From contig BCHH01000005.1 in assembly GCA_001599595.1 (NCBI GenBank), forward strand, positions 1,247,552 to 1,311,551: 64,000 bases of DNA, written 5' to 3'. The notes beneath the pieces were generated by a model. The model did no database searches. It was given only the letters and a program-made list of their open reading frames with translations, and was not told the DNA's origin. The stretch comes from Beverwykella pulmonaria. Its lineage: Eukaryota; Ascomycota; Dothideomycetes; Pleosporales; Melanommataceae. Both the position numbers and the translations under genes were made by a program. Every line of letters starts with the position of its first letter. The first letter of the stretch is position 1. Of the stretch, positions 358-14,859 are shown one piece after another.

Positions 358-2687
358 ATGGATCGGTTTGTAGAGGAATATGAGCCAGGGTGGATTAGAG
401 ATCTTTGGCAGAGCAATGCAGCCGTGGAAAGGTCATCAGCATTCTTTGAGAAGCTCTCATGCGATATTGGTGAGTCGTTATCAAATAATTATAAACCCTA
501 TGTCTAACCAATCTGTGTTTAAAGAGCAGCTTCAGGAGCGACTACAAACATTGCCCCTGGATGGTCATGACGCTGGAACTCCTCGCCGAGACTCTGTTCT
601 TGCCGAAGACCTCGAAGGTCGACCAGTGATCGACTCTTACGGAAGTTTGCGTCAGTGGTTAGGCTCAGCTATGCCAGAACATAACCCAGCGATCGACAGC
701 CTCTGTCAGTCACAGCAACACTTTCGATCTTGGGCAGCGCCTTTCATGGCTAAGCCAAACTATTTCACCGTCGATCAAACCGATTTTAGATACCTTTGCA
801 AAATGTTCTTAGACTCTGATCGTTCCCTCGAGCAAGACTGCCATAGACTTTTCCTGCAGGTCGAATCTATGCGTAAAGACTACATTCGCTTATGCACAAC
901 AAAATCACAGCCAAATACTCTTCGAAGTATCATAGCCTTACGGATTATGAAGATATCTGAGGAAAGCAACAGCCCAGGAGAACCGAAAAATATACTGCGT
1001 GCAGATGTTGAAACCCTTGACCCTATCCCAGTTAGCATCCTGGATATTGCCTTGTCATCCAATCAAGTCGGTGTTATCGGAAAGGTGCTCCCTCAAATAT
1101 CGGATGCGAAGACTCGAGAGCTCTACCGTGGAATTTGCATCAGGGCTTGCGCTTTTTGTCGGAAGCCTAAATTTTATGTACTCGATAACGATGCTTATCC
1201 TCTACTCCGCAACCTGACTGAGTTTCCGCGAGATGCTCCTGGAGACAACTGCGCATATCATAGGAACGTCTGCTCGTCATGCCGCTTTACATGGTTGATT
1301 AGAGATATTTGTCAAGAATGGTGGCACGACTTGGCATATCTTACTTGGTTGAAGCCTCGTTGCAATCGACGCTGCTCCATGAATAAGTCATTGAAAGGGA
1401 TCCGTGACGTAAATGCATATATTCTACAGTTTAACGGCGTGGATTCTGGGGATCTACGTAGATGCATGAATATGTATGGCGTCGTTGACCCTAGCTATGG
1501 CTGTCAAGCTTACTTTCCAAAGGTACCGGCAAGTACTTCAATACCGACATGCTCTCCAAGAGCTAAAGCCTCGACCTGAACCCCGGGACCTCGCTGTGGC
1601 ACAGCGTCTTTTGGGCCGCTTCCTTGACATCGGTCTTATGCACAACTTCATACAGCTGGACACCACCACAGAAACGTTGAAGATAGCTCAGTATATGACG
1701 GTAATCCTCGAATATGAATGGTCAAGGGCATCCCCAGATCTAATATATCAAGTTCCGATCTTCTTAAACCTTTTCAGGCGCCATCACATTCCAAAAGAGT
1801 GTATTGTGTGCGCTGAGGATAAATTCGAGATTGATTACGGCTCATGGCTATTGTGGAATCAGGCCTGCGAAAAATTCAGAGGTCCTTGGATGTGGACAGT
1901 ATTAGAATATCCTGTTAGCGAACACCAGCGATGTACTCATTCTCCCGATGTCTGCCGGCTATGCATAGCCAAACACATCGCCATCAGCCTGGAAAATGGC
2001 AATTTTGAACGGATTACATGCCCACAATGTGACCGGGGGCTGGCTTACGATGAAATCAAGAATTTGTGTCCAGAAGAAACCTTTAAAATGTAGGTTTGTT
2101 TGAGTACAACTCATGACAGTGTTCAGACTGATTCTTTACTTGTAGGTACGACAAACGTGTCCTTCTTCACACACTCGGCAAGTTGCCAAATTTCCGTTGG
2201 TGCCTTGCTCCACATTGTGAAAGCGGCCAAGTATACGATGAAGTTGATCCCACGTTTCCAATTGTGCAGTGCCAGGAGTGTGATTTCAAAATGTGCTTTT
2301 ATCATGAGCGCCCTTGGCACAATGGTTTAACATGCGATGAGTTCGATTCATCACTCACACATGGAGACCCAAAGTATCAGGAAACCCAGGCAGTTATAGA
2401 AAAGAACACGAAAGGGTGCCCAAATTGCGATGTTCGAATTGAGAAGGGCCCCGGTTGCTTTCATATGACATGTAAGTACTTCTCTTAAGCCGGTATGAAT
2501 GAATGGCTCACTCTCACAAGGCGCGTCTTGCAAGCACGAGTTTTGCTGGGAATGTCTGGTCTCCTGGCAGCTGGTGAGGGCGAACCGTCTGAACCACTAT
2601 TATGGCTGCTATTTCCGCAGCAGTGACTTGGCGCCAACTGCTATCACTGGCATTGATCTACGTACAGCATTACAGCCGAGAGGGTGA
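358..2687 (+). CDS. RBR-type (RING1-IBR-RING2) E3 ubiquitin ligase-like protein, apparent frameshift
   Basis: Predicted exons are 358-469, 525-2089, 2146-2471 and 2521-2687, separated by 49-56 nt GT-AG introns. About 722 aa if one extra base near 1530 is ignored. The N-terminal ~450 residues have paired cysteines (ACAFC, CSSC) but no family I recognise. From about residue 460 there is a RING1 (CIVCAEDKF, later CRLC and CPQC), then an IBR (FRWCLAPHCESGQ, CQECDFKMCFYHERPWH) and a RING2 (GCPNCDVRIEKGPGCFHMTC, then CKHEFCWECL). RBR ligases pass ubiquitin through a RING2 cysteine thioester; the C in HMTC is a candidate. The frame changes between about 1515 and 1560 with no good intron there: either a 1-nt error or an inactivating mutation. 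The start at 358 is the first ATG leading into the spliced frame. No partner gene is evident. Confidence 0.75.
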
Positions 2688-4763
2688 TTTTGAGGCTATT
2701 TCAGGTGGAGTAAGGCTTGTTAGTCTACTGCATTCGTTTTAGAATGGACCATGTTGGATGAGCGTGTAACCAGTCGTGTCAGAGCTCGCCGTGGACATGT
2801 CCTCATGGGATCTGACTTTAGCGAGTTAATTTTGAGGATTCAAAAAGAGAAGAAAGGTTCCAGTCTCCCAGGAGGCAATCTCGGAGTGGCGTGTGAAGGA
2901 ATCATGATCGAGAAAGAGATTCCATAACTTAACACAACCTCTACAACTGTAGAAGAAACATTTCGCTTCCGGCTCAAACATGGGAAGCGAAACGGAGGGT
3001 TCATTTTAAAGAAGCGTAACACCTTGGTAGAATTATTGAGACCCTAAATTACTACCCTAATGGCAGCGTCAATGGAAGCACCATGGTTGTTTATCGTATG
3101 CTACATCATAATAGTTTTGGGATCGTAGTGGTAAAATGTTGTTCTCAGGTCACAACCGGATAGTAGAGCGATCATGTGCAGAGCGCATGACTACTCCCTT
3201 TTCACTCTGGAGTTGTGGATTTGTTTTCTACATATGACCCTTGCTGTCATCAGCGCGGGGCTAATATTTGGTTTGGCCCACACAACCAAGCATGCTTGAA
3301 AAAGTTGCTTATCTGCACTACCACAACGAATTTGATCAACCAGCTCTACCGGTGCACTCTAAGCACATAAATAACTCGTTATACCCATGACGGCTATGTC
3401 TAGTCATAGTGCAGGGCTTTGCGGTGACGTTGAGGCAGCTCTTTGGTCACGTTGGCCGCCCAAAGCAGCTTCAAGTTCAAGAGGGAAGTGATTTTTACCG
3501 CTTTCCGTACCCGCACCTTATACCGGTATAACGTAAGCAACATTACTAGACTTGCGGAAACAGGTTGCGGACCACTCAACTGCAGCACAATTGGCGACTG
3601 TTCTGTCTGACTAATTAAGCCCAAATTCGCCTTGTGTTGCCTTTGCTAGTGCTCGTCATCACACGGTGGAACACGTTATGCAAAACGACACTGTATGCAT
3701 GTATCAAAGACACTACTCCAGAGGCCTCTGTCCCATATCATTGCGTAAGGAGCTTAACCAGAGGTCCTACGGGTTCAATAAATACTTGGGCATGGTTCGT
3801 GCGTAGACCGAATCCGATTAGGGCTCGGTTGCGCATTTGAAGGTTGTTTGCCCAGCTCGTCGTTCGGAGGGTATCGTGGAATACAGTACCCTCAACAGTG
3901 TCACTCCGTGACACGCCTAAGTGAACATATCGCCCAATCGGCGATCGTCAAAACGGAAGTTAACTGTACTACACATAGCTTGGCAACATTCAAAACATTA
4001 TGGATTGCTACTGAATTCGAATAACTAAACGTAGATATTGATGGGGTGATCGAGGTTCCGATCTTACCCAACCGTAATGCGGTCTCAGCTTCATCCTTGA
4101 AGTGCCAACTACGTCGGAATTACTGAGTCCGTGCTCGGAGAAACTGTTTTATGGGAAAGCAATCTAGAATTTCCCACAGCTGTAATTCAAATACTTAGAG
4201 GAGTATATTGAGAGGGTCGATGGGGAAACGAATAAGAAGGGTTTATATAGACTTAGCTCACTCGTAGTTAATTATGAGGAAGATAATGCCCCATAGGAGG
4301 CTAGAACGGAGGGAAAGCCAACAGAAACAAAGCGATAGTGATGACGAAGTGAGATCTCGGGTTATTAAGAACGAATAAAAATAAAGAAAGTGAGAGCGGC
4401 AGATGAGAAAGAAAACGGCATTAACGATGTAAGATACATGTACGACGCGGCATGTACATGGATCCGACTGTAAATTGCGAGACAGTGCATTTAAGTAGGT
4501 CTGTATTGATGAATATTGAGACAGTGATAATCTAAAACACTACGCCCTTCTTTTACATTACCTAGGATATTGATCCTCAACGAGGCTCCTTCATATTCTC
4601 AATCTTAGTTTACTTACAAAATGTTATTGCCGCTCAGTAGCGATCTTCTAGGCGCTCTTGATAGAATTTTGGCAATATGCCTTTTTGTAATACTGAATTG
4701 TTTGTTTTCTTTTCCTTTCTTTGAAAACTTGATCATGATATTATGCTATATATCAAACTTCTC
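2688..4763. other. Intergenic, no gene supported
   Basis: Only short, uncharacteristic open frames occur on both strands. A 90-codon plus-strand frame at 4621-4893 lies opposite the tail of the decayed ankyrin gene and is regarded as its shadow. No repeat structure or RNA gene was recognised. Confidence 0.5.
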
Positions 4764-5897: not shown

Positions 5898-6943
5898 TCA
5901 AGATTCGGTGCTCCAGGTACGAGGCAGCAAAGGAGGGCAGCGGGAAATCTTGAAATCTTTCAAAGGAACTGAAGTAATTATCGAGTAGTTGGAAGGTGGA
6001 AAATATTTGTATGACTTGTTTTGCGAAGGTAGCTTGAGCGAAGCAAGATGATATAATGAACTCTATAATGGTGCAAAAGGAACTGTACTGCTGACGAGCC
6101 TTAGCCTAAGCCCGCGCTTTATTCCTCGTGCCTCGATAACGCGTAACATGAAAAGTTGAAATAACCCAAGGGCCAAATCGAGAAGGTGCATGTTGCGATG
6201 TTCGGTCGTTGATGATTCCTACAAGGAAGAACGTTGAGGTAGGCAGACAAAAGATACGATGTTAATTTTGTTAGAGTGACTTCATCCGGTAAGGTAGACT
6301 GAAAAGTTAAAGACAACAGAGTACTAGATCTACATCAGCGCCCTCCTAGGAGTGAAATTCGGTCTGTAGTGACTTGAAGACGTAATCGTCGTTTGGAAAA
6401 GCCGCACCTCCACGAACATTGAATCCAGTCTGACCTCAGGAGAGATGTGTCCAGGCTTTGATAAACGAATTCGCTCATTACCCGCCTTGAAATGTGTCCA
6501 GTGGCTCCTGGCGCCTAACTCGATCCTTGCCAGCCTTTGACGTTGCTTATTTGGGGCACAGCCGTTGAGTAGGGCGTTCGGCCCATGGAGTGTGTTTCGG
6601 CACTAGCGAAATGTGAAACGTTCAACACAGCCCATCTAAATATAAACTGATATAACAGAGAAGGCTAGTTCAGGGAATTTAGGTCACTTCTATTCATTAA
6701 AAAGAGAGAGAAAGTAAATGTGAAGATGCTAGTATGCAAAACCGCGCTATATGCATGCATCATAAAAATTACTCTCAAACGCTAGAGAAAATCCCAAATA
6801 CTCATTCATTGTGCCAAACTCGCTCGCTCTCGCTGGCAACAATAGATGCAAAACGTAAACCCTTCATTTTCCATGAACTTAGACGAGGGCGAACAAGGAT
6901 ATGGCTTTAAACCAAAAGAAAATCTTCCCCTTCTCACCGACGA
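5898..6943. other. Intergenic, no gene supported
   Basis: Contains the presumed upstream side of the ankyrin relic and the 3' flank of the peroxidase gene. No open frame has recognisable homology and no repeat was seen. Confidence 0.5.
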
Positions 6944-9337
6944 TCAGTTCTTTGCCCAAACTCCAATCCGATTACCTGCCCCACAAAAGCTCCCCTGGTC
7001 CCCAGGACACTCCATAGAGCATTGCCTCTCCTCCACAACTTGACTCGCTCCCAACACATCCCCGCAATAGCACTCTTCTCCATACTCAACACCAAAGAAC
7101 TTCTTCTCCCCACAAAACGATGCACACATGGGCACCGACATATTATGTGCGTAGACGAAACTATCACCTAGCACGCGCGCAGAAACAGAATCAGTATAAC
7201 ATCCAGAATATGTATACCCCGGGATGGCGGGGTTGGAGGGGGGCGGGTAGAGTGTGAGAGACTTGAAGATTGTGAGGCGATAGCCGGCACCACATATTTG
7301 CGATGAGTTACCGGCGCAGGGCATGTTGCATTCGGAGTCGGGATGGACCATGTTGTATGAAGGAAGCGCATTCCCGCAGTAGCATTCAGAACCATACTCG
7401 ACACCGAAGTACATGTAACCTGAGCAGAAGGTGGCGCACGACTCGTAGGTATTGGAGTTGGAGACTTGGCCTTTGGCGGTGAAGGTACGGTCGGAGATGG
7501 AGTCGGTGAGGCAGCCGGTGTAGTTGTAACCTGCGAAGGTGGGGAGGGTAGAGTTGGATGTCGGTGTGGGCATGGAGGATGAGGTGGAGGTCTGGGTGCT
7601 TGGTTGGCTGGTGGTTGAAGAGCTGATCGAGCTTGTCGATGCTGGAACCGAAATATCGCTCGTAAGCATAGTGGTAGAAGTCGAATCCGAAGCAACAACA
7701 CTTGGTGAGCTAGCAGGTATTGAGCTCGAAGTCGGCGTCGGTGTCGGTGTTGCTGAACCCAATGGAGCGCAAACAGATGACAAAGAGTTGGTGTTTTTGT
7801 TGTTGTCCGACGCACCATCAGCGCTCACGCCAAAAACAGCAGACTGGGCTTGAGAGCCTGTAAACGTGTAGCTTGCAGAGTACAGCTGGTACGCTCCAAC
7901 AGCAGACTGGGTAGCCATGGCTGCCGTAGCAGTTGAAAGCGCAGGCACGACAACGGGGCTCGCGCGGGGGTTCTTAACGATGACGTTGAGGCTAGGGGAT
8001 GAAGCACCGTTGCGGACGGCAGCGACGACGGTGAGTTTGCCAGAGGCATCAAGGCAGCTGTTGGGAGCTTGGTAGATAATAGTGTCGTCAACTTTAAAGC
8101 CAGCACCGTTGTTGTCCCATGTCTCGGTGCTACCGCTCAAGAGCATGATGAGTACGGTGAAGGAGGAGATGGATGTGTCAGCTGACAGCTGCGTGGAGAA
8201 GCCGTAGAACGAGAAGGTGTCATCAAAGCCGGAGGCGGATCCTTTGGAGGTAGTGGAGATAGGAGTAGGGACGGTTGCTCCTGTTTTATCCTTGTAGACG
8301 AGTTGGACTTGAGAGATTGAGGATGCAGACCGTGTGGTTGTTCGGACGCGAATGTCTCCCGTAAAGTTGAACCTTGAGCCTCCATCAAGAAGAGTGAGTT
8401 GAAGATCGTACGGCTTGATCTCGTACGGGGTGATAATATCGGACAGCGTAACACCGGAGGGGACAACCTCGATCATCTTCTGAAACATTTTCTGGCAGAC
8501 ATCTGAAAATGCCTGGGGGTCTTGCAACGTCTTCATGGTGGCATTACCGTCGGCGTTGTAGACCTTGAAGTCAGAGTTTTGCGACTTAGCTTGGGAGATT
8601 CCGACCACGAGAGGATTATTGGTATTCCCGTTAAGATACTCGGTGACAACTCTGTTATCGAAGACGGTCGGGGTTGAGTCTATGAAGCCGTAGTCGTTGG
8701 GTACTGACCCCGCGGCGACGATTAGTGGAAAGTTGACCGCGTGGACTCCACCAAGTGTGTGTCCGCAGGCAGTGAACTGGATCATCTCTGCGTCAGTGCT
8801 GAATCCGAATCGTAGAAACTGATTCCTGAAGATGCTAATCGCATTCTGGGGTTGAGGGACACCAGTGAGACCAGCAGCAGTAGCATCGACATGCCCGCCT
8901 CGCACAGGAATAATGGGTCCGCCACAGGACCGGGTTGCTGCGTATACACCAAGGGAAATGAGGTCTGCCATGGAGGTCCGACTCGAGAGGAACGGCGCGT
9001 AGTTTGTAAGCGTGGTATTAAAAGCCGCGCCTATATTTTCGCCGCTTTTAGTCTCGAAAACAATCGAAGCGTCCAATCCTCCAGTGCCTTGGTATACGTT
9101 GCCTGTTGACATGTCATGGAAGGCAGTTCGAAGCCATTCAGCGGCAGTAATGCGGCCTGGTCCCGGAGCAGCAGAGCAAGGTATCACGGGCGCTGCAAAA
9201 CCACGTGCTCGATAACCCGAGTTCAGTAACATGATGTCTTCCAGGTCATCAGTAGCAGCGGGCCAAGTTGGTGCGGCTGTTGCATATTGCTGACTCGCGA
9301 GCAGAAGCCCAGCGAGTATTGGGTTTCTCCAAATCAT
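6944..9337 (-). CDS. Secreted heme peroxidase with two C-terminal WSC domains
   Basis: Single exon, 797 aa. A hydrophobic signal peptide occupies about residues 1-22. The catalytic part follows the plant/fungal peroxidase superfamily pattern: distal Arg70-x2-Phe73-His74 in LRTAFHDM and proximal His193 in ACGHTLGGVH. After a beta-rich region a Ser/Thr/Pro-rich linker (about 525-600) leads to two WSC domains (about 603-695 and 705-795), each with the FGVEYG.ECYCG signature and 8 or so cysteines. WSC modules bind glycans or sit in cell-wall sensors, so the enzyme may be tethered to wall polysaccharide (inference). Substrate is unknown: it could oxidise phenolics or lignin-like material, or act in peroxide defence. 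The gene stands alone between the ankyrin relic and the transposon. Confidence 0.9.
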   Translation of the reverse strand: MIWRNPILAGLLLASQQYATAAPTWPAATDDLEDIMLLNSGYRARGFAAPVIPCSAAPGPGRITAAEWLRTAFHDMSTGNVYQGTGGLDASIVFETKSGENIGAAFNTTLTNYAPFLSSRTSMADLISLGVYAATRSCGGPIIPVRGGHVDATAAGLTGVPQPQNAISIFRNQFLRFGFSTDAEMIQFTACGHTLGGVHAVNFPLIVAAGSVPNDYGFIDSTPTVFDNRVVTEYLNGNTNNPLVVGISQAKSQNSDFKVYNADGNATMKTLQDPQAFSDVCQKMFQKMIEVVPSGVTLSDIITPYEIKPYDLQLTLLDGGSRFNFTGDIRVRTTTRSASSISQVQLVYKDKTGATVPTPISTTSKGSASGFDDTFSFYGFSTQLSADTSISSFTVLIMLLSGSTETWDNNGAGFKVDDTIIYQAPNSCLDASGKLTVVAAVRNGASSPSLNVIVKNPRASPVVVPALSTATAAMATQSAVGAYQLYSASYTFTGSQAQSAVFGVSADGASDNNKNTNSLSSVCAPLGSATPTPTPTSSSIPASSPSVVASDSTSTTMLTSDISVPASTSSISSSTTSQPSTQTSTSSSMPTPTSNSTLPTFAGYNYTGCLTDSISDRTFTAKGQVSNSNTYESCATFCSGYMYFGVEYGSECYCGNALPSYNMVHPDSECNMPCAGNSSQICGAGYRLTIFKSLTLYPPPSNPAIPGYTYSGCYTDSVSARVLGDSFVYAHNMSVPMCASFCGEKKFFGVEYGEECYCGDVLGASQVVEERQCSMECPGDQGSFCGAGNRIGVWAKN

Positions 9338-9926
9338 AATGAAAAACTAGGTTGGATAAAAATAACAGCAAAATACAAGAACTGACAAAACCCCCAATTC
9401 CAAAGATTGGACAACACAGCAGGAAAAGAAGAGTGAAGAACAAAAAAGGAAAGTGAGTGTATGTAAAGATATGCTAGATGAAATTGATACAGCCGGCTAT
9501 GGACAGTAGACGTTGGCTCTTTGACATGAACATTTTATAGAGATCTGAAAGTGTAACCAAACGTCACCGATTCGACGTTAGATGGCGAGACATCGCCCAT
9601 AAGCTTGAGAACCGCAGCTGGAATGGGTGCGTTTGGATATTGAACCACCATGGATTGGTGGAGTCGAGAAAGAGCCCGTAGAAACGAGAAGAAAGATTGA
9701 AAGAGATCCACGGCACGGATTCAATAAATCGTGTATCAGCTGTGGAAAGCTGAAAGCGGGTTGATGCATCTAAACGGGGAGGAGCAAGGGTCTGTCGATA
9801 TCTCGTGCATAAAGTGTGCAGCTCAACCGACAGGGGGGGAGGGTTGGGCTCGGCATCGCTCGGAGAGTAAGTTCTGAGGTTAATTTCGTAGGCACCATCA
9901 GGAGATGCGGTTTGAAGGCCCCATAA
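9338..9926. promoter_or_regulatory. Peroxidase upstream region up to the transposon insertion
   Basis: About 590 bp between the peroxidase start and the target site duplication. It presumably holds the peroxidase promoter (minus strand). No gene, and no element that I can assign with confidence. The transposon sits about 600 bp upstream of the peroxidase ATG, near enough to influence its expression. Confidence 0.4.
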
Positions 9927-9936
9927 CGATCAGACG
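9927..9936 (+). repeat. Target site duplication, left copy
   Basis: CGATCAGACG, identical to 14850-14859, directly outside the terminal inverted repeat. Ten bases fits the 8-11 bp duplications made by Mutator-like transposases. Confidence 0.85.
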
Positions 9937-9976
9937 AGGTTACAGCTCAGCTGACCCACACTAGAGCCTCGCTAAA
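9937..9976 (+). repeat. Left terminal inverted repeat of the MULE
   Basis: The core 9941-9973 matches the reverse complement of 14812-14844 at 32 of 33 positions, including ACCCACACTAGAGCCTCGCT. The outermost 4-5 bases are less well conserved. Confidence 0.9.
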
Positions 9977-10096
9977 TTCTCTTGGCGCTGCAGACCCCTG
10001 TACAAAAATTTCTCGATTTAAGGGGGTGACTGCCCAACTTTCAACGGAGTCCTTTCTGCCAACTGACTTCCTATTTCAGATAGCTCACAACTAGCC

Positions 10097-13000
10097 ATGG
10101 GTAAATTGCTTCCCAACGTATTCACAACGTATTCTCATGAAACTAGACTCTTCCCAGATATCGCCCTGCAACACCTCGTTCAACAATGTTACTCCACACA
10201 GCAGCGACTACGAAGATTATTTCATAGAGCTTAATGATACGCCAGAGCCTACTGTTGAAGATGCAATGCAGGATGAGCTACAGGAGAGTGAAACGATAGA
10301 TGAGGTAGAAAAAGACCAACACGTTGAGAACATGTTAGTAACCTGTTTACAAGACAATACCTGAACCTTATCAAATTACGACTGGCCCTGCAGAACCATT
10401 ACTCAGCCAACATCTTACTCATATTGCGTTGCTGCCTGAATACCCAGAAACAGCTGCACATGGTTACACCTACTGCGTAAAAATAGACCAGCACAGTGCA
10501 GAACACGAGCATGTTCTTGAAGAGGCTCTCCAAGTAAGCGGATTATGTTATGAACGTGTTACAGAGCCAATCTGAACATCTTTAGATCCAATATTGTCGA
10601 AGACGGAGAGCCCCACCAAAGGCTACTAGCTCCCCGTTTCTTGGTGTGCCTGCTACAAGGTATAAATACCGATGCACTGGAGTACGACGTTGTAAATATC
10701 TTCATAACACGTTGCGAACACATTCACATACTAGTGTCACCCCAGAGACTTGGGAGCTGCTAAAGCAAGCCCGGCAGGGAATTGAGAGAACTCACATAGA
10801 TAAGCAGAGTCAGAATTCTACCAGGTAGTTATTGTGAACATAATGTGAACGTGTTGCTAACATGTTTAGTTTATATTTATCAATTATGAGTCGATTTCAG
10901 AGTGGAATTGCTTGCGGTAGCCGAAAGCCTCAATGTGCGCCTATCCTGCGGCAAATGGCTAACAAGGTAATTCTTCTAAATAACTTGTGAAGTAATTCTG
11001 AACATAATATAGTCTGTTTCTGGTATTCAGCACTGGTATATTGGCTGTGCAACATGGAGCTACGCGCTTCCTAATACTGAGAGGCATTTCTTTAAGATAC
11101 TAGCTGAGAGGTATAGTATTCCTCGTCTTCAAGTACTATTTAGAGATGGCCTAGGGGACGTTGAGCTGCAGCCAGAATCCTGCGGTACTATTGAGTCAAC
11201 CTTGACAAGGATGAAGAACTGCAGTAAGTGTTCTAAACATGTTCTCAACAGGTTCATAACTGTATTACAGATATTGACCATCCACAAGGGCCTGGGCAGC
11301 TTATAGCCCAGAGCTGCGAAGTAAAATTTGATATAATTATTCCCCATAACTTAGTACAGACTCCATACTACACATTTACGTCACGTGGGGTTCATGAGCA
11401 TCCCCCTCCACCTCCACATAAAACGCCTGAGGCTTTAACAAACGAAATTATCCAACTTATCCAACGTATTAATGATCCTGGGTTAACAACAGGTTTGTAA
11501 TGTGTTCTTAATAGGTTGTGATTAAGTTGTTAACATGTTGATAGCAAAGTTTCTCTGCAGTCCTTTCCTAGACGAGCTTTGCAAGGCTCATAGCGTAACA
11601 CACTATACTCAATTACACCCAACATTAGTTAATCTTAGCTGGACAGAGCGCCAGGTATATCGAACAAATCTTATTACATTTCCAAGAGGTCAAGAGCTTG
11701 CTGGGGTTGAGTTCGAGTGGCGCAGGCAAGCGTTAAACCCTGAAACAGTATGTGAATGTGTTCTGAAGGTATTTACATCATGTTGATAACAGGAGCAGGC
11801 ATACATCCAGCACGTACAGAGTTCAGAACTGGGCACGCTTATTTTTTGCTTCTACAAAGAACAGGCAGATCTCTTTGTCTTGCAAAGAAGCTTTCAAATA
11901 GATCTTTCTTTTAAGCGTATCAAGGATCAGAACTTCAAAGAGCTGATTTTTGCGATGTTTCATGAAGATCATGGGAAGGGTATGTGAACACGTCCTGAAC
12001 ATGTTGACATTCTAATATGTTTAGTTATAACTCTTGCACGTGTTCTTGTCAACAGTGAACGAAAAGACGTATATACAATATGCTTTCAGACATTCTTTCA
12101 ATTACTTTCACAATGTGTTCAGAAGGAAATACAATGGAAACATCTGCATGGCGAGGGTTTTGCCGGAATTACAATTGATATGGACTCTAAACAGATGTCA
12201 GGTAAAGAGATTAATCCTGTTTAGAACTCGTTGCTAACATGTTGACAAGGATTTGGTCATTACCTCGCTAGTATTGACGTACAGCAGCGCCCGTGGCAGT
12301 GGCACCTTCAAAACTGTGTTATATTCTGCCAAATTCACTTCCTACGAAGTGTAACAGCAACTGCTGGGACTGCAGAGGGGCACTACTCTCCCCATTCTCG
12401 TATGAGATCCCTTCTCACATGCCAAAGTCAGGCAGAGTACAATGATCTTTGCGACCTTCTTATGAGTTAGTTGCGAATTCCTTCTGAACATGTTAGCAAC
12501 TAATTAGACAGTAGGGCATGAATCTCCTTCTGTACGCCGTTGGGCTTTGCATAAGAAGAATCCAGTAATTGCAGCAGGGCTTAACCATAGCTGTTCTTTA
12601 ATGGAAAAAGCTGATTGGGATGAGTTCTCAAAGACTTCTAATGCTGTTGAGCAGAGTGGCAACAAGTCCTATTCGTATGGGATGAGAATGAAACTACTAA
12701 GAGCAATTCAATCGTAAGTCAGTTATAAACACGTCTGGAACACGTTCGTAACATGTTATAGTGCGCAAAAGCTTGACATGCGGGATGTTAGTCAGTATAG
12801 GGCTCGTGAGGACTACGGAATGAGACATATTGCTCGTTCAACAGCCATGTCTGCCCGTTATATCAACCATCTGGCCAGAGATAGTATGTGTTCCAATGTT
12901 ATAGGAACAGGTTTCTAACATGTTCAGAACGACGTCAAGATAGATACTCTGACCCTATTCCCGACGAACTCCTATGTGATGAGACTGATGACAGTATCTT

Positions 13001-13405
13001 ATTCCAATCCTCATCCTCAGGCGTTGTACGAGCTCCATCTTCAGAAAGAAGGGGTCGTGCAAGGAGCAGGAGAGGTAGTAGAAGTGCAAGCCAAAGCAGA
13101 CGTCGCTCATCTACACAAGAAATGCAGAGTGCCTCGTAAGCATGTTACTAACGTTTTGACAACGTGTTGCTAACATATTGACAAGGCCTATGCCAGGAAA
13201 CGAGAGATTAAAGCGTCAAGCACTAAATAATAATGCAGAATTACAAGCAAGACGCCTACGTCTTGAGCAACAAGAGGAGGAAGAGTTACTCCGGCAGCGA
13301 GAAGTAAAGCTTAGATCAACAAGACTAGAAACTCAAAGGCTAGAGCTAGATCTCGCAATACAGGAGAAGGAGATGGCAGAAAGAATGAGGTTAAATGGTT
13401 TGTAA
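10097..13405 (+). CDS. MULE DDE transposase, 877 aa, 14 introns
   Basis: Predicted exons: 10097-10100, 10147-10304, 10354-10533, 10586-10824, 10870-10966, 11013-11223, 11271-11492, 11545-11747, 11793-11979, 12025-12201, 12250-12465, 12512-12713, 12762-12883, 12940-13135 and 13186-13405. Splicing gives 2634 nt, in frame throughout. Residues 1-55 are acidic; about 139-155 has a Cys-containing motif (YRCTGVRRCKYLH); about 336-346 has HEHPPPPPHK. The MULE-type triad is probably Asp475 (FQIDLSFKRI), Asp552 or Asp554 (GITIDMDSKQ) and Glu678 (SNAVEQSGNKSY). An Arg/Ser-rich stretch (~770-800) precedes a charged coiled coil (~810-877). It would cut and rejoin the element ends in the nucleus. The start uses a 4-nt first exon (CCATGG|GTAAAT); an unspliced ATG at 10137 in the same frame is the alternative. 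Confidence 0.85.
10101..13185 (+). repeat. Family of similar introns with AACATGTT core in the transposase gene
   Basis: Introns: 10101-10146, 10305-10353, 10534-10585, 10825-10869, 10967-11012, 11224-11270, 11493-11544, 11748-11792, 11980-12024, 12202-12249, 12466-12511, 12714-12761, 12884-12939 and 13136-13185, all 45-56 nt. Nine hold an exact AACATGTT; most others hold close variants such as AACATATT or TCATGTTG. A recurring 3' half is CTAACATGTTGACAAG, which merges branch site, palindrome and acceptor. The recurring 5' half is GTATGTGAA or GTAAG followed by TGTTCTGAA-like sequence. I found no exact copy in the exons. Confidence 0.8.
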
Positions 13406-13635
13406 CCTTGTCAATATGTTGTCAACATGTTGAGAAGGTGTTGATTGATATATGTTGGATGTTTATTAGATACATTGTGAACATGTTCCGAAGTCGTTGA
13501 GAACCTGTTGGTAATGGTTGAGTATATCTACTCAAAGTCTCCCCGCCAACTTCATCTACTTACCATGTTCTGAACGTGTTCAGAACATTACCATAACGTC
13601 TTAAGATTTCCCTTCTCCACTAATTCGTCCAACCT
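13406..13635. repeat. 3'-3' spacer of the MULE with more AACATGTT-type palindromes
   Basis: The spacer between the two convergent stop codons repeats the same vocabulary: TCAACATGTTGAG, GTGAACATGTTCCG, GAGAACCTGTTGG and TTCTGAACGTGTTCAGAAC. The motif is therefore not limited to spliced introns, which argues that it may also act as a DNA site. Both transcription terminators presumably lie here. Confidence 0.7.
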
Positions 13636-14701
13636 CTAAATGTCGGCATAATCACCATCATCATCGTCATCCTCCTGCTCATCTTCCTCGCTATCATCTC
13701 CGTCAAACAAGCCTTTGAAGAATTTGATGTTCTCACAGCACAAGGTGAACAGACAGTCTGAACATGTTAGTAACGTGTTTGCAACACCTTCATATGACTT
13801 TCTTACGCGTTGGAATTTCTTGGCTCATGGCTGCTGCATCACGAACACACCCGGCACAAGGCACATCTCCACCCTTCGCCTTAGCAATCTTTGAGCAAGC
13901 CTTAAGATTGAGCTAAACACATTGTCAACACGTTCCTAACAGTATGTTAACAGAATTCACTCACTTGTCCTTTAATTTGATTCCTCTTCTTGTTGGCAGA
14001 CTTGTAGACGGGTGCATCGACACGTTGAGAACGAATTGGAGACGGCTTCGGCGGGCGCGAGGCTTTTTTCGACGTTCGCGGCGGCGGAGGGATCATGTTC
14101 TCAACTTGTTCAGAACCCTTTTCGGCGACATTGGTATTGTGTTTAGCCATAATTTGCGCGTAGAAAGCTGCGGNATTGTTATGAATATATTCAGAAGCAA
14201 TTATCGAATTTCTTACGACGAGCTTCCTCGACTCTCTTGGTTGAAGGATTTCCAGTATGACCAGATGGTTGCACACGGACAAGATCTTGATGATGCTTTT
14301 TGATATGAGTGCAGAGTGCGCCACGGCTATCAAAGACCTTCTGAATATGTTGAGAATGTGTTAACAACAATCTAGTTCATCTCAAGAANAGCTTGGGAAC
14401 CGCTTCAGAAGGGGTTCAACTTACGCCGCAAAGCTCTCCATTCAGNCCTGGGAGCTCAACTCGGCAATAGAGCTCTCCAAATTCCACATGAATCTCTGGA
14501 ATACCAGCCTTGTGAACATGTTCAGAACAGTATGACAAGACATTGTTTCTCGCTTACAATGTCACCCAGAACCGCAAATTTGTCTGCGCCTAGCGGAAGC
14601 TCGCCGAGCGCCTTATACGCTCTGTATGAGGTCTACAGAACGATCAGAACGTTTCTATATGTGATAATTGTACTTACTGAGGACTCGAGCGCTTTGGACA
14701 T
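13636..14701 (-). CDS. MULE accessory protein, 244 aa, possible zinc finger
   Basis: Exons on the minus strand: 14701-14678, 14632-14558, 14508-14425, 14337-14217, 14167-13965, 13912-13807 and 13757-13636; 735 nt spliced, in frame. I recognise no named family. Visible parts: an N-terminal segment with ELYCRVELPG, a His-rich piece (GALCTHIKKHH) that could form a C2H2-like zinc site, a basic Pro-rich middle (MIPPPPRTSKKASRPPKP), a Cys motif (VPCAGCVRDAAA) and a strongly acidic C-terminus ending DDDDDGDYADI. A second DNA-binding protein beside a transposase resembles two-gene plant elements such as MuDR (mudrA/mudrB) or Spm, so a role in binding element DNA or helping transposition is an inference. 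The introns carry the same AACATGTT-type sequences as the transposase gene. Three N bases fall here; two are in exon or intron and do not break the frame. Confidence 0.7.
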
Positions 14702-14807
14702 GTTGTGATATAATTGGAGGTGAGTTGAAGAGTTGATAGAGAAGGTGAGAAGGCGAGAAGGTGGAGGAGTCATCTCAGTTATTGTGGGTAGGTCCGTGCG
14801 ACGCTAA

Positions 14808-14849
14808 ATTAAGCGAGGCTCTAGTGTGGGTCAGATGAGCTGTAGTCTC
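14808..14849 (-). repeat. Right terminal inverted repeat of the MULE
   Basis: Inverted partner of 9937-9976, with the core at 14812-14844 (AGCGAGGCTCTAGTGTGGGT and onward) and a single mismatch in 33. Confidence 0.9.
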
Positions 14850-14859
14850 CGATCAGACG
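14850..14859 (+). repeat. Target site duplication, right copy
   Basis: CGATCAGACG, identical to 9927-9936. Removing the element plus one copy restores an uninterrupted flank. Confidence 0.85.

What the first reader, a model, noticed from the sequence alone, without database searches (positions are those of the whole stretch)
10101..14677. All introns of the transposon share an AACATGTT palindrome fused to splice signals
Twenty introns in two unrelated, oppositely oriented genes of one MULE have related sequences. I count exact AACATGTT in 9 of 14 transposase introns, 2 of 6 accessory-gene introns and twice in the 3'-3' spacer; other introns have one- or two-base variants. I found none in exons, and only one elsewhere in this window in a quick scan (about 30.23 kb). 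By chance an 8-mer is expected about once in 64 kb. The common 3' part CTAACATGTTGACAAG joins branch site, palindrome and 3' splice site. Possible explanations: introns spread by copying within the element (introner-like), convergent selection for DNA sites read by the element's own proteins, or selection for a splicing property.
Basis: partly seen in the sequence, partly recalled or inferred. Interest (0 to 1): 0.88.

Follow-up and report, generated by a model that had tools for sequence, protein, structure and literature searches.

The report
Transposon introns packed with palindrome arrays
In one fungal genome, five related families of jumping gene carry in their introns short palindromes repeated every 11 bases, and the palindrome's sequence differs between groups of families; this suggests that a transposon protein reads these DNA arrays, perhaps to keep the element from being silenced, as some plant transposons do.

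Summary
The unit is AACNNGTT repeated at exactly 11 bp; it fills most introns and the spacer of the 4.9-kb element. A scan for any half-site found eight 11-bp palindrome pairs in the window, all AAC and all inside the element. Genome-wide: 105 versus 6 control places.

Five diverged transposase families (29-48% aa identity among the four aligned) share the 11-bp register. A, B and C use AAC/GTT; D uses AAT/ATT; E a YGCR-centred palindrome. Eleven of A's 13 intron positions are shared, in phase, by A-D, so the introns are old and their motif changed together. Similarity is largely strand-symmetric; gene-less MITEs keep the arrays; some arrays lie in exons. This speaks against introner copying and splicing as causes, and for DNA sites read by an element-encoded protein.

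The best candidate reader is the convergent accessory gene (C2H2-like finger, acidic tail). The best functional analogue is the anti-silencing of Arabidopsis VANC/VANDAL MULEs. Membership fails: no VANC domain was found. Binding and anti-silencing are inferred, not shown. Nine searches of an open-access library listed no fungal report.

The parts
9927..9935 (.). left target-site duplication CGATCAGAC (9 bp)
   Evidence: read from sequence; flanks printed
9936..14849 (.). whole MULE-like element, family A; 5 near-identical full copies in the genome
   Evidence: (copies align over about 9936-14849 at 99-100%)
9941..9978 (+). left terminal inverted repeat (38 bp aligned; element starts 5 bp further out)
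14807..14844 (-). right terminal inverted repeat
14850..14858 (.). right target-site duplication CGATCAGAC
10137..13405 (+). transposase gene, 14 exons, 877 aa after removal of 13 introns
   Evidence: P0001/P0002 align without intron-sized insertions at the intron positions
10305..10353 (+). transposase intron 1: three AACNNGTT sites at 11 bp (10318, 10329, 10340)
10534..10585 (+). transposase intron 2 (site at 10553)
10825..10869 (+). transposase intron 3: sites 10848, 10859
10967..11030 (+). transposase intron 4 (no exact site)
11224..11270 (+). transposase intron 5: sites 11236, 11247
11493..11544 (+). transposase intron 6: site 11532 (11488 straddles the exon end)
11748..11792 (+). transposase intron 7 (no exact site)
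11980..12024 (+). transposase intron 8: site 11998
12202..12249 (+). transposase intron 9: sites 12225, 12236; the only intron of this element with the exact CTAACATGTTGACAAG
12466..12511 (+). transposase intron 10: site 12487
12714..12761 (+). transposase intron 11: sites 12739, 12750
12884..12927 (+). transposase intron 12: sites 12906, 12917
13136..13185 (+). transposase intron 13: four-unit array (one exact site, 13161)
13406..13635 (.). 3'-3' spacer with arrays (exact sites 13424, 13480, 13502, 13573); an optional 14th intron spans 13398-13437
10706..10724 (+). array inside coding exon 3 (AACACGTT NNN AACACATT)
13636..14701 (-). accessory gene, 7 exons, 245 aa: C2H2-like finger and acidic tail
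13758..13806 (-). accessory intron 6: sites 13761, 13772
13913..13964 (-). accessory intron 5: site 13927
14168..14216 (-). accessory intron 4 (no exact site)
14341..14424 (-). accessory intron 3 (no exact site)
14509..14557 (-). accessory intron 2: site 14515
14633..14677 (-). accessory intron 1 (no exact site)
14092..14121 (-). three-unit array inside coding accessory exon 5; only the middle unit (14103-14110) is exact

Best explanation
The arrays are double-stranded DNA binding sites: palindromic half-site pairs stacked about one per helical turn (11 bp). They are spread through the non-coding DNA of the element and squeezed into a few exons. A DNA-binding protein encoded by the element itself reads them. 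Most likely this is the convergent accessory C2H2-like protein, oligomerising along the array. I infer that binding keeps the element's chromatin open (anti-silencing or activation in trans on all family copies, MITEs included), as VANC proteins do for Arabidopsis VANDAL MULEs. The introns are old; they serve as freely evolving landing pads, and the motif turned over throughout each element as reader and sites co-evolved. Shown: the arrays, the 11-bp register, the different motifs, conserved intron positions, largely strand-symmetric similarity, retention in MITEs. Inferred: protein binding, which protein binds, and anti-silencing.
For: Own-motif sites in transposase introns versus dinucleotide shuffles: A 18 (exp 0.6), B 23 (0.5), C 13 (0.4) AACNNGTT; D 32 AATNNATT (1.7) with only 1 AACNNGTT. 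Own-motif pairs at 11 bp: A 15, B 14, C 9, D 27, E 6, with at most 2 at any other single spacing from 8 to 14 bp; shuffle means 0.01-0.49. De novo models: A AACATGTT, B/C gAACatGTTc, D AATatATT, E AaTGCAtT. Any-half-site scan: 8 pairs at 11 bp in the window, all AAC and inside the element; 0-1 at six other spacings. Introns match each other's reverse complement nearly as well (A 11.0 vs 11.7, shuffled 6.6). Two MITEs: 11 sites in 1046 bp, longest stop-to-stop stretch 53 codons; three short B-like elements keep arrays. Accessory proteins of A, B (two), E and L057 are related (pairwise blastp A-B2 2e-21, A-E 1e-11, A-L057 3e-9, single-subject E-values); D has a remnant. In a 91%-identical A' copy, intron site cores differ at 3 of 69 positions versus 36 of 259 other intron positions (p = 0.035). 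Precedent: VANC21 binds motif arrays in introns, intergenic and terminal regions, and motifs differ between families (PMC5735166).
Against: No binding, methylation or expression data. The accessory finger is below Pfam's cut-off in A and L057 and gave no match in E, and its cysteine spacing is atypical. Family C shows no accessory gene in the stretch read (its 3' end looks truncated) and D only a remnant, so the finger cannot be matched to each motif; A, B and C share one code although their proteins differ. Two of 13 A introns, two of 13 C introns and 3 of 6 A accessory introns lack an exact site. Cross-scans are not perfectly clean: A introns have 3 AAT-type 11-bp pairs with one mismatch allowed, E introns 4, and D introns 7 E-type sites; B introns have 2 AATNNATT (exp 0.4). 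The A/A' conservation test is small and its cores were defined on the focal copy. The E motif was defined after seeing the E introns.
Confidence: 0.5

Rival explanations
1. The arrays are binding sites of the transposase itself, used for transposition (loading or synapsis) or autoregulation, as with subterminal repeats of other DNA transposons.
For: MITEs keep the arrays with the ends. The transposase ends in a conserved coiled coil (by eye in the alignment), which would suit palindromic sites. PMC10398659 states that Spm TnpA activation correlates with demethylation and that MuDR MURA induces hypomethylation of TIRs (passage read).
Against: The arrays are not concentrated at the ends: the A TIRs carry no exact site, and sites run through the whole element, the accessory gene and its introns.
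Confidence: 0.22
2. A host DNA-binding factor or a nucleosome/DNA-shape effect uses the arrays.
For: The 11-bp period is close to a helical turn and puts AA and TT in phase.
Against: Related families in one nucleus use different half-sites (AAC, AAT, YGCR) with little cross-occurrence: D introns have 3 AAC-type sites with one mismatch allowed (shuffle mean 2.7) and no AAC 11-bp pair (the exceptions are listed under the best explanation). A host reader or a shape effect would not need the base code to follow the family. The C/G of AAC..GTT is the most informative position in the eight-base models of A and B, though not of C.
Confidence: 0.12
3. Selection for a splicing or RNA property: a composite of branch site and 3' splice site.
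For: The last AAY of many arrays doubles as the branch-site CTAAY, and arrays end at the 3' splice site.
Against: Largely strand-symmetric similarity; arrays in MITEs with no stop-to-stop stretch over 53 codons, in spacers and in coding exons (e.g. three exact units coding EERVTNPLATGS in L057); 0 of 38 intron-like host segments in the window hold AACNNGTT (a crude and insensitive regex set).
Confidence: 0.06
4. Introner-like copying: the introns are copies of one mobile intron within the element.
For: Introns of one element resemble each other (A mean local score 11.7 versus 6.6 for mononucleotide shuffles).
Against: 11 of 13 A intron positions are shared in phase with B, C and D at 29-48% aa identity; similarity is nearly as high on the reverse strand, and orthologous introns are no more alike than others in 4 of 6 comparisons.
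Confidence: 0.02
5. Neutral tandem-repeat expansion or gene conversion homogenised the introns without a reader.
For: Tandem repeat turnover is how VANC targets are reported to evolve (PMC5735166).
Against: Units share the half-sites but not the rest: 13 different 3-base spacers in 15 A pairs, and central dinucleotides vary, so the register is kept while the unit sequence is not copied. GCT recurs (3 of 15 in A, 9 of 27 in D), as expected from the branch site.
Confidence: 0.08

Closest known systems
VANC/VANDAL anti-silencing system of Arabidopsis MULEs (VANC21 YAGTATTAY; VANC6 AGTTGTCC/AC)
   Same: A MULE with a separate gene besides the transposase; dense arrays of a short motif in introns, intergenic and terminal non-coding DNA; motif differing between related families (PMC5735166).
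   Different: Fungal; accessory protein C2H2-like rather than with DUF1985/DUF287; motif palindromic and locked to an 11-bp register, whereas YAGTATTAY motifs are reported as arrayed in one orientation; arrays in most short introns and in some exons; anti-silencing not shown.
Spm TnpA and MuDR MURA
   Same: Transposon proteins reported to lessen methylation of their own copies (stated in PMC10398659, passage read).
   Different: As I recall, their sites lie near the element ends; here they are spread through introns and the TIRs carry no exact site.
Fungal DNA transposons carrying TET/JBP dioxygenase
   Same: A proposed escape of fungal DNA transposons from silencing through an accessory gene (PMC12730594, passages read).
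   Different: An enzyme that removes methylcytosine; no motif arrays mentioned in the passages read, and no such domain found in the two A proteins.
Introners
   Same: Introns of one genome resembling each other (PMC9860276, passages read).
   Different: Introners create new introns by copying, with similarity reaching the splice boundaries; here the positions are old and the likeness lies in the palindromes.

Membership tests
VANC/VANDAL anti-silencing system | accessory protein with VANC domains (DUF1985, DUF287) | tested here: not met
   Pfam scan of the A accessory protein at E up to 10: only zf-C2H2_4 (8e-5, below cut-off) and zf-C2H2 (0.0026, below cut-off); E accessory no match, L057 accessory only weak C2H2 matches, at E up to 1; B accessory proteins not scanned
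VANC/VANDAL anti-silencing system | dense arrays of a short motif in non-coding regions of the element | tested here: met
VANC/VANDAL anti-silencing system | motif specific to a TE family and different in related families | tested here: met
   A/B/C AACNNGTT, D AATNNATT, E YGCR-centred; met in part only, since A, B and C share one code
VANC/VANDAL anti-silencing system | multiple motifs arrayed in the same orientation | tested here: not met
   half-sites AAC/GTT and AAT/ATT are palindromic and have no orientation; reverse-complement similarity nearly as high. The models were forced to be palindromic and do not test this.
VANC/VANDAL anti-silencing system | accessory protein binds the motif and removes silent marks | not testable with these tools
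   needs EMSA/ChIP and methylation or H3K9me data
MULE (Mutator-like element) | 9-bp target-site duplication | tested here: met
   read by eye from flanks: A CGATCAGAC, B AACGCCACC, E CTATCACAG; none found for D, C not testable
MULE (Mutator-like element) | terminal inverted repeats | tested here: met
   A 38 bp, B 42 bp; weaker in D and E; no right end found for C in the 400 bp searched
MULE (Mutator-like element) | MULE transposase domain PF10551 | tested here: inconclusive
   A: E 0.01, 16.7 bits versus cut-off 27.6; not listed for P0001, P0002 or the parts of C and D scanned; invariant acidic residues D471, D550, E674 could be a DDE triad; structure model too poor to use
C2H2 zinc finger protein | C2H2 finger above Pfam cut-off | tested here: inconclusive
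   A zf-C2H2_4 E 8e-5, 23.5 bits versus 27; L057 below cut-off and no match for E; first cysteine atypically spaced
Introner | similar introns at new, lineage-specific positions | tested here: not met
   11 of 13 A positions shared in phase by A-D, 7 of them in exactly the same alignment column

The most novel reading that the evidence does not exclude
Fungal MULEs evolved, independently of plants and with an unrelated accessory protein, a sequence-specific anti-silencing system. Most of their introns are landing pads of helically phased palindromes, and the half-site code (AAC, AAT, YGCR) switched across the introns of an element while the 11-bp register stayed fixed.
Probability: 0.4. Interest if true: 0.9.

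Novelty: new variant of a known kind. Interest (0 to 1): 0.83.

Why it matters
If true, sequence-specific self-recognition by transposons has arisen in fungi as well as plants, from unrelated proteins. Discussing VANC, Hosaka et al. [quoted passage not shown] this would give a second system in which to ask. It would show introns kept and reshaped as protein landing pads inside a selfish element, and it offers natural motif sets with a fixed register but different base code, a system for studying how a DNA-binding protein changes specificity while dozens of its sites change with it.

Tried and rejected
Introner copying: tested by mapping intron positions and phases on a protein alignment and by all-against-all intron alignment with orthologous, non-orthologous, shuffled and reverse-complement controls; rejected. 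Splicing as the cause: weighed against MITEs, exonic arrays and strand symmetry; rejected as the main cause. RIP as the origin of AAT from AAC: D's spliced reading frame is open for 897 aa and its exon RIP-type indices are not raised (TpA/ApT 0.83); not supported. Homologues of the accessory protein in the protein database: 272 candidates, none at E up to 1. The genome search with the A accessory protein listed B1 (2e-7), a degenerate copy at C17 (5e-7) and B2 only at 0.06, and did not list E, L057 or D; I recognised those by eye, and pairwise blastp then supported E, L057, B1 and B2; D was not compared (filters and composition correction off). Homologues of the transposase: only P0001 and P0002, also with the five-row alignment. 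Structure of P0001 from two sequences: mean pLDDT 35.6, not used; no fold search was run. Solved structures: no meaningful hit. Host introns: only a crude regex set of 38 segments, because no host annotation was at hand; the same regex gives 3 matches in the element, so it is insensitive. A solo accessory copy at C17:88529 is degenerate, with no exact 11-bp pair (L055). Family E intron positions were not mapped formally; 12 E introns recognised by eye were used and others were left out. Papers: nine searches; none of the listed titles or abstract starts described this for a fungal MULE; the library lacks most subscription papers and all bioRxiv preprints. The letters AACATGTT were in none of the 10 papers listed, which asked for only two of its three terms.
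Full report
WHAT WAS CHECKED. Exact AACATGTT occurs 15 times in the window against 1.1 expected; 0 of 100 shuffles reached 15. Two, not one, are elsewhere (5699, 30230). In a scan that asked for any half-site, eight palindrome pairs at 11 bp were found in the window, all AAC and all inside the element; spacings of 9, 10, 12, 13, 14 and 15 bp gave 0, 1, 1, 0, 0 and 0, none inside the element.

THE ELEMENT. It spans 9936-14849, flanked by the 9-bp duplication CGATCAGAC, with inverted repeats of which 38 bp align. Five nearly identical full copies, this one included, exist in the 45.6-Mb genome. The plus-strand transposase gene has 13 introns and gives 877 aa when they are removed; a 14th intron at the 3' end is optional. 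Two database proteins, P0001 (Pleomassaria siparia, 52% identity over 97%) and P0002 (Plenodomus lindquistii, 42% over 95%), align without intron-sized insertions at those positions, which suggests that other annotators removed the same introns; their gene structures were not seen. That both species are Pleosporales is recalled. The minus-strand accessory gene has 6 introns and gives 245 aa with a C2H2-like finger (zf-C2H2_4, E 8e-5, below cut-off) and an acidic tail. The MULE assignment rests on the duplications, the inverted repeats and a weak PF10551 match (E 0.01, below cut-off).

FIVE FAMILIES, THREE CODES, ONE REGISTER. A search with the transposase found diverged relatives (the D protein listed no further family; both searches score only the best candidates, and one short match at C2:4458720 was not followed): B (C13 and C9; L051), C (C7; L052), D (C1; L053), E (C25; L054). 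Aligned identities among A-D are 29-48%. C and D have open reading frames once introns are removed (862 and 897 aa); B has masked letters; E carries in-frame stops. Own-motif sites in introns: A 18 AACNNGTT in 635 bp, expected 0.6, in 11 of 13 introns; B 23, expected 0.5, 12 of 12 (and 2 AATNNATT, expected 0.4); C 13, expected 0.4, 11 of 13; D 32 AATNNATT in 786 bp, expected 1.7, 14 of 14, with one AACNNGTT. De novo models, forced to be palindromic, agree. E uses a palindrome centred on GC (AaTGCAtT in the eight-base model); its degenerate pattern was defined after inspection, and 12 introns recognised by eye were used. Own-motif pairs at exactly 11 bp: A 15, B 14, C 9, D 27, E 6; shuffle means 0.01 to 0.49; own-motif pairs at any other single spacing from 8 to 14 bp number at most 2. 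Cross-scan: D introns have no AAC pair; but A introns have 3 AAT-type pairs when one mismatch is allowed, E introns 4, and D introns 7 E-type sites without a pair (shuffle mean 1.7), so the codes overlap somewhat, as one-mismatch neighbours would. A, B and C share one code, so the code does not change at every split.

GENOME-WIDE. AACNNGTTNNNAACNNGTT: 105 places against 6 for the reversed control. The 25-base three-unit pattern with up to one mismatch: 130 forward and 141 reverse against 1 and 2. Only the first places are listed by the tool, so not every place could be assigned to an element. The AAT version: 17 matches against 0; 14 in D, 1 in E, 2 at C2:2064044, which was not looked into.

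INTRONS ARE OLD. Eleven of A's 13 intron positions are shared, in the same phase, by A, B, C and D: seven in exactly the same alignment column, the others within seven columns in gapped stretches. One more is shared by A, C and D, and one by A and B (D has one nearby in the same phase). So the motif changed in introns that were already there.

DNA, NOT RNA. Introns of one family resemble each other above mononucleotide-shuffled introns, and nearly as much in reverse complement: A 11.7 versus 11.0 (shuffled 6.6), B 12.6 versus 10.8 (6.7), C 9.4 versus 8.8 (6.5), D 15.1 versus 12.9 (8.4). Orthologous introns of two families are on average no more alike than non-orthologous ones in 4 of 6 comparisons and slightly more in 2 (B-C, B-D). 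Two 1046-bp MITEs of family A hold 11 AACNNGTT sites each with no stop-to-stop stretch above 53 codons. Three short B-like elements (C4, C7, C14) keep arrays (their frames were not examined). Arrays occur in coding sequence: A exon 3, and three exact units in the accessory exon of L057. In C, transposase exons hold 4 AACNNGTT against 0.7 expected; in A 1 and in B 2 against 0.5. Host intron-like segments picked by a crude regex: 0 of 38 hold the motif. In A', a copy of the accessory half that is 91% identical (C2:4870667), differences fall at 3 of 69 site-core intron positions, 36 of 259 other intron positions, 12 of 118 spacer positions and 42 of 621 exon positions; core versus other intron p = 0.035. 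That test is small, and the cores were defined on the focal copy with one mismatch allowed.

MECHANISM. The constant register with a changing base code points to a protein that stacks along the DNA about once per turn and whose base contacts evolve. The accessory protein is the likelier reader: it has a finger and an acidic tail (also Asp-rich in B2), and related proteins occur in A, B (twice), E and L057 (pairwise blastp 2e-21 for A-B2, 7e-8 and 7e-13 for A with the two parts of B1, 1e-11 for A-E, 3e-9 for A-L057; single-subject E-values), with a remnant in D. C has no right inverted repeat that I could find in 400 bp, so its accessory half may be lost. The transposase remains a serious alternative. 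The function is inferred from the Arabidopsis VANC system, where a MULE-encoded protein binds motif arrays in introns, intergenic and terminal regions, motifs differ between families and tandem repeats turn over fast (PMC5735166: abstract, Results and Discussion sections read; PMC10398659: abstract and passages).

WHAT IS NOT SHOWN. No binding, splicing, methylation or expression data. No DNA of the two named relatives was obtained. The structure model of P0001 was too poor to use.

VERDICT. A real and strongly non-random feature that works, by its anatomy, like a VANC target system, but is not a member of that family: no VANC domain found, palindromic instead of oriented motif. New variant of a known kind, with a fair chance of being an independent fungal invention.

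Noticed in passing
L057 (C1:908300-912300), about 1790-2450: A solo accessory gene with an intact 191-aa frame, beside what looks like the 3' remnant of a B-like transposase; three exact AACNNGTT units lie in its coding exon.
   Followed up: partly
L055 (C17:86000-91500), about 2560-3110 of the reverse complement: A degenerate solo accessory copy close to what looks like a polyketide synthase gene (recognised by eye).
   Followed up: no
L051 about 6000-6300: Family B's second accessory gene has a long Asp-rich low-complexity tail, next to a stretch that reads N in the held genome.
   Followed up: no
window 12928-13405: The transposase C-terminus has an Arg/Ser-rich stretch followed by a coiled-coil-like stretch (by eye); it might mediate dimerisation.
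   Followed up: no
L054, first about 480 bases of the reverse complement: Family E appears inserted in a retroelement polymerase frame (recognised by eye), with 9-bp duplication CTATCACAG.
   Followed up: no
G000:C2:2064044-2064073: An isolated AATNNATT array outside the elements studied.
   Followed up: no
G000:C2:4458720-4459040: A single short match to the A transposase (36% identity over residues 111-219), perhaps the remains of a further family.
   Followed up: no
window 6944-9346, minus strand: An 800-aa open frame that looks like a secreted peroxidase with C-terminal WSC-like Cys repeats (recalled, not searched).
   Followed up: no
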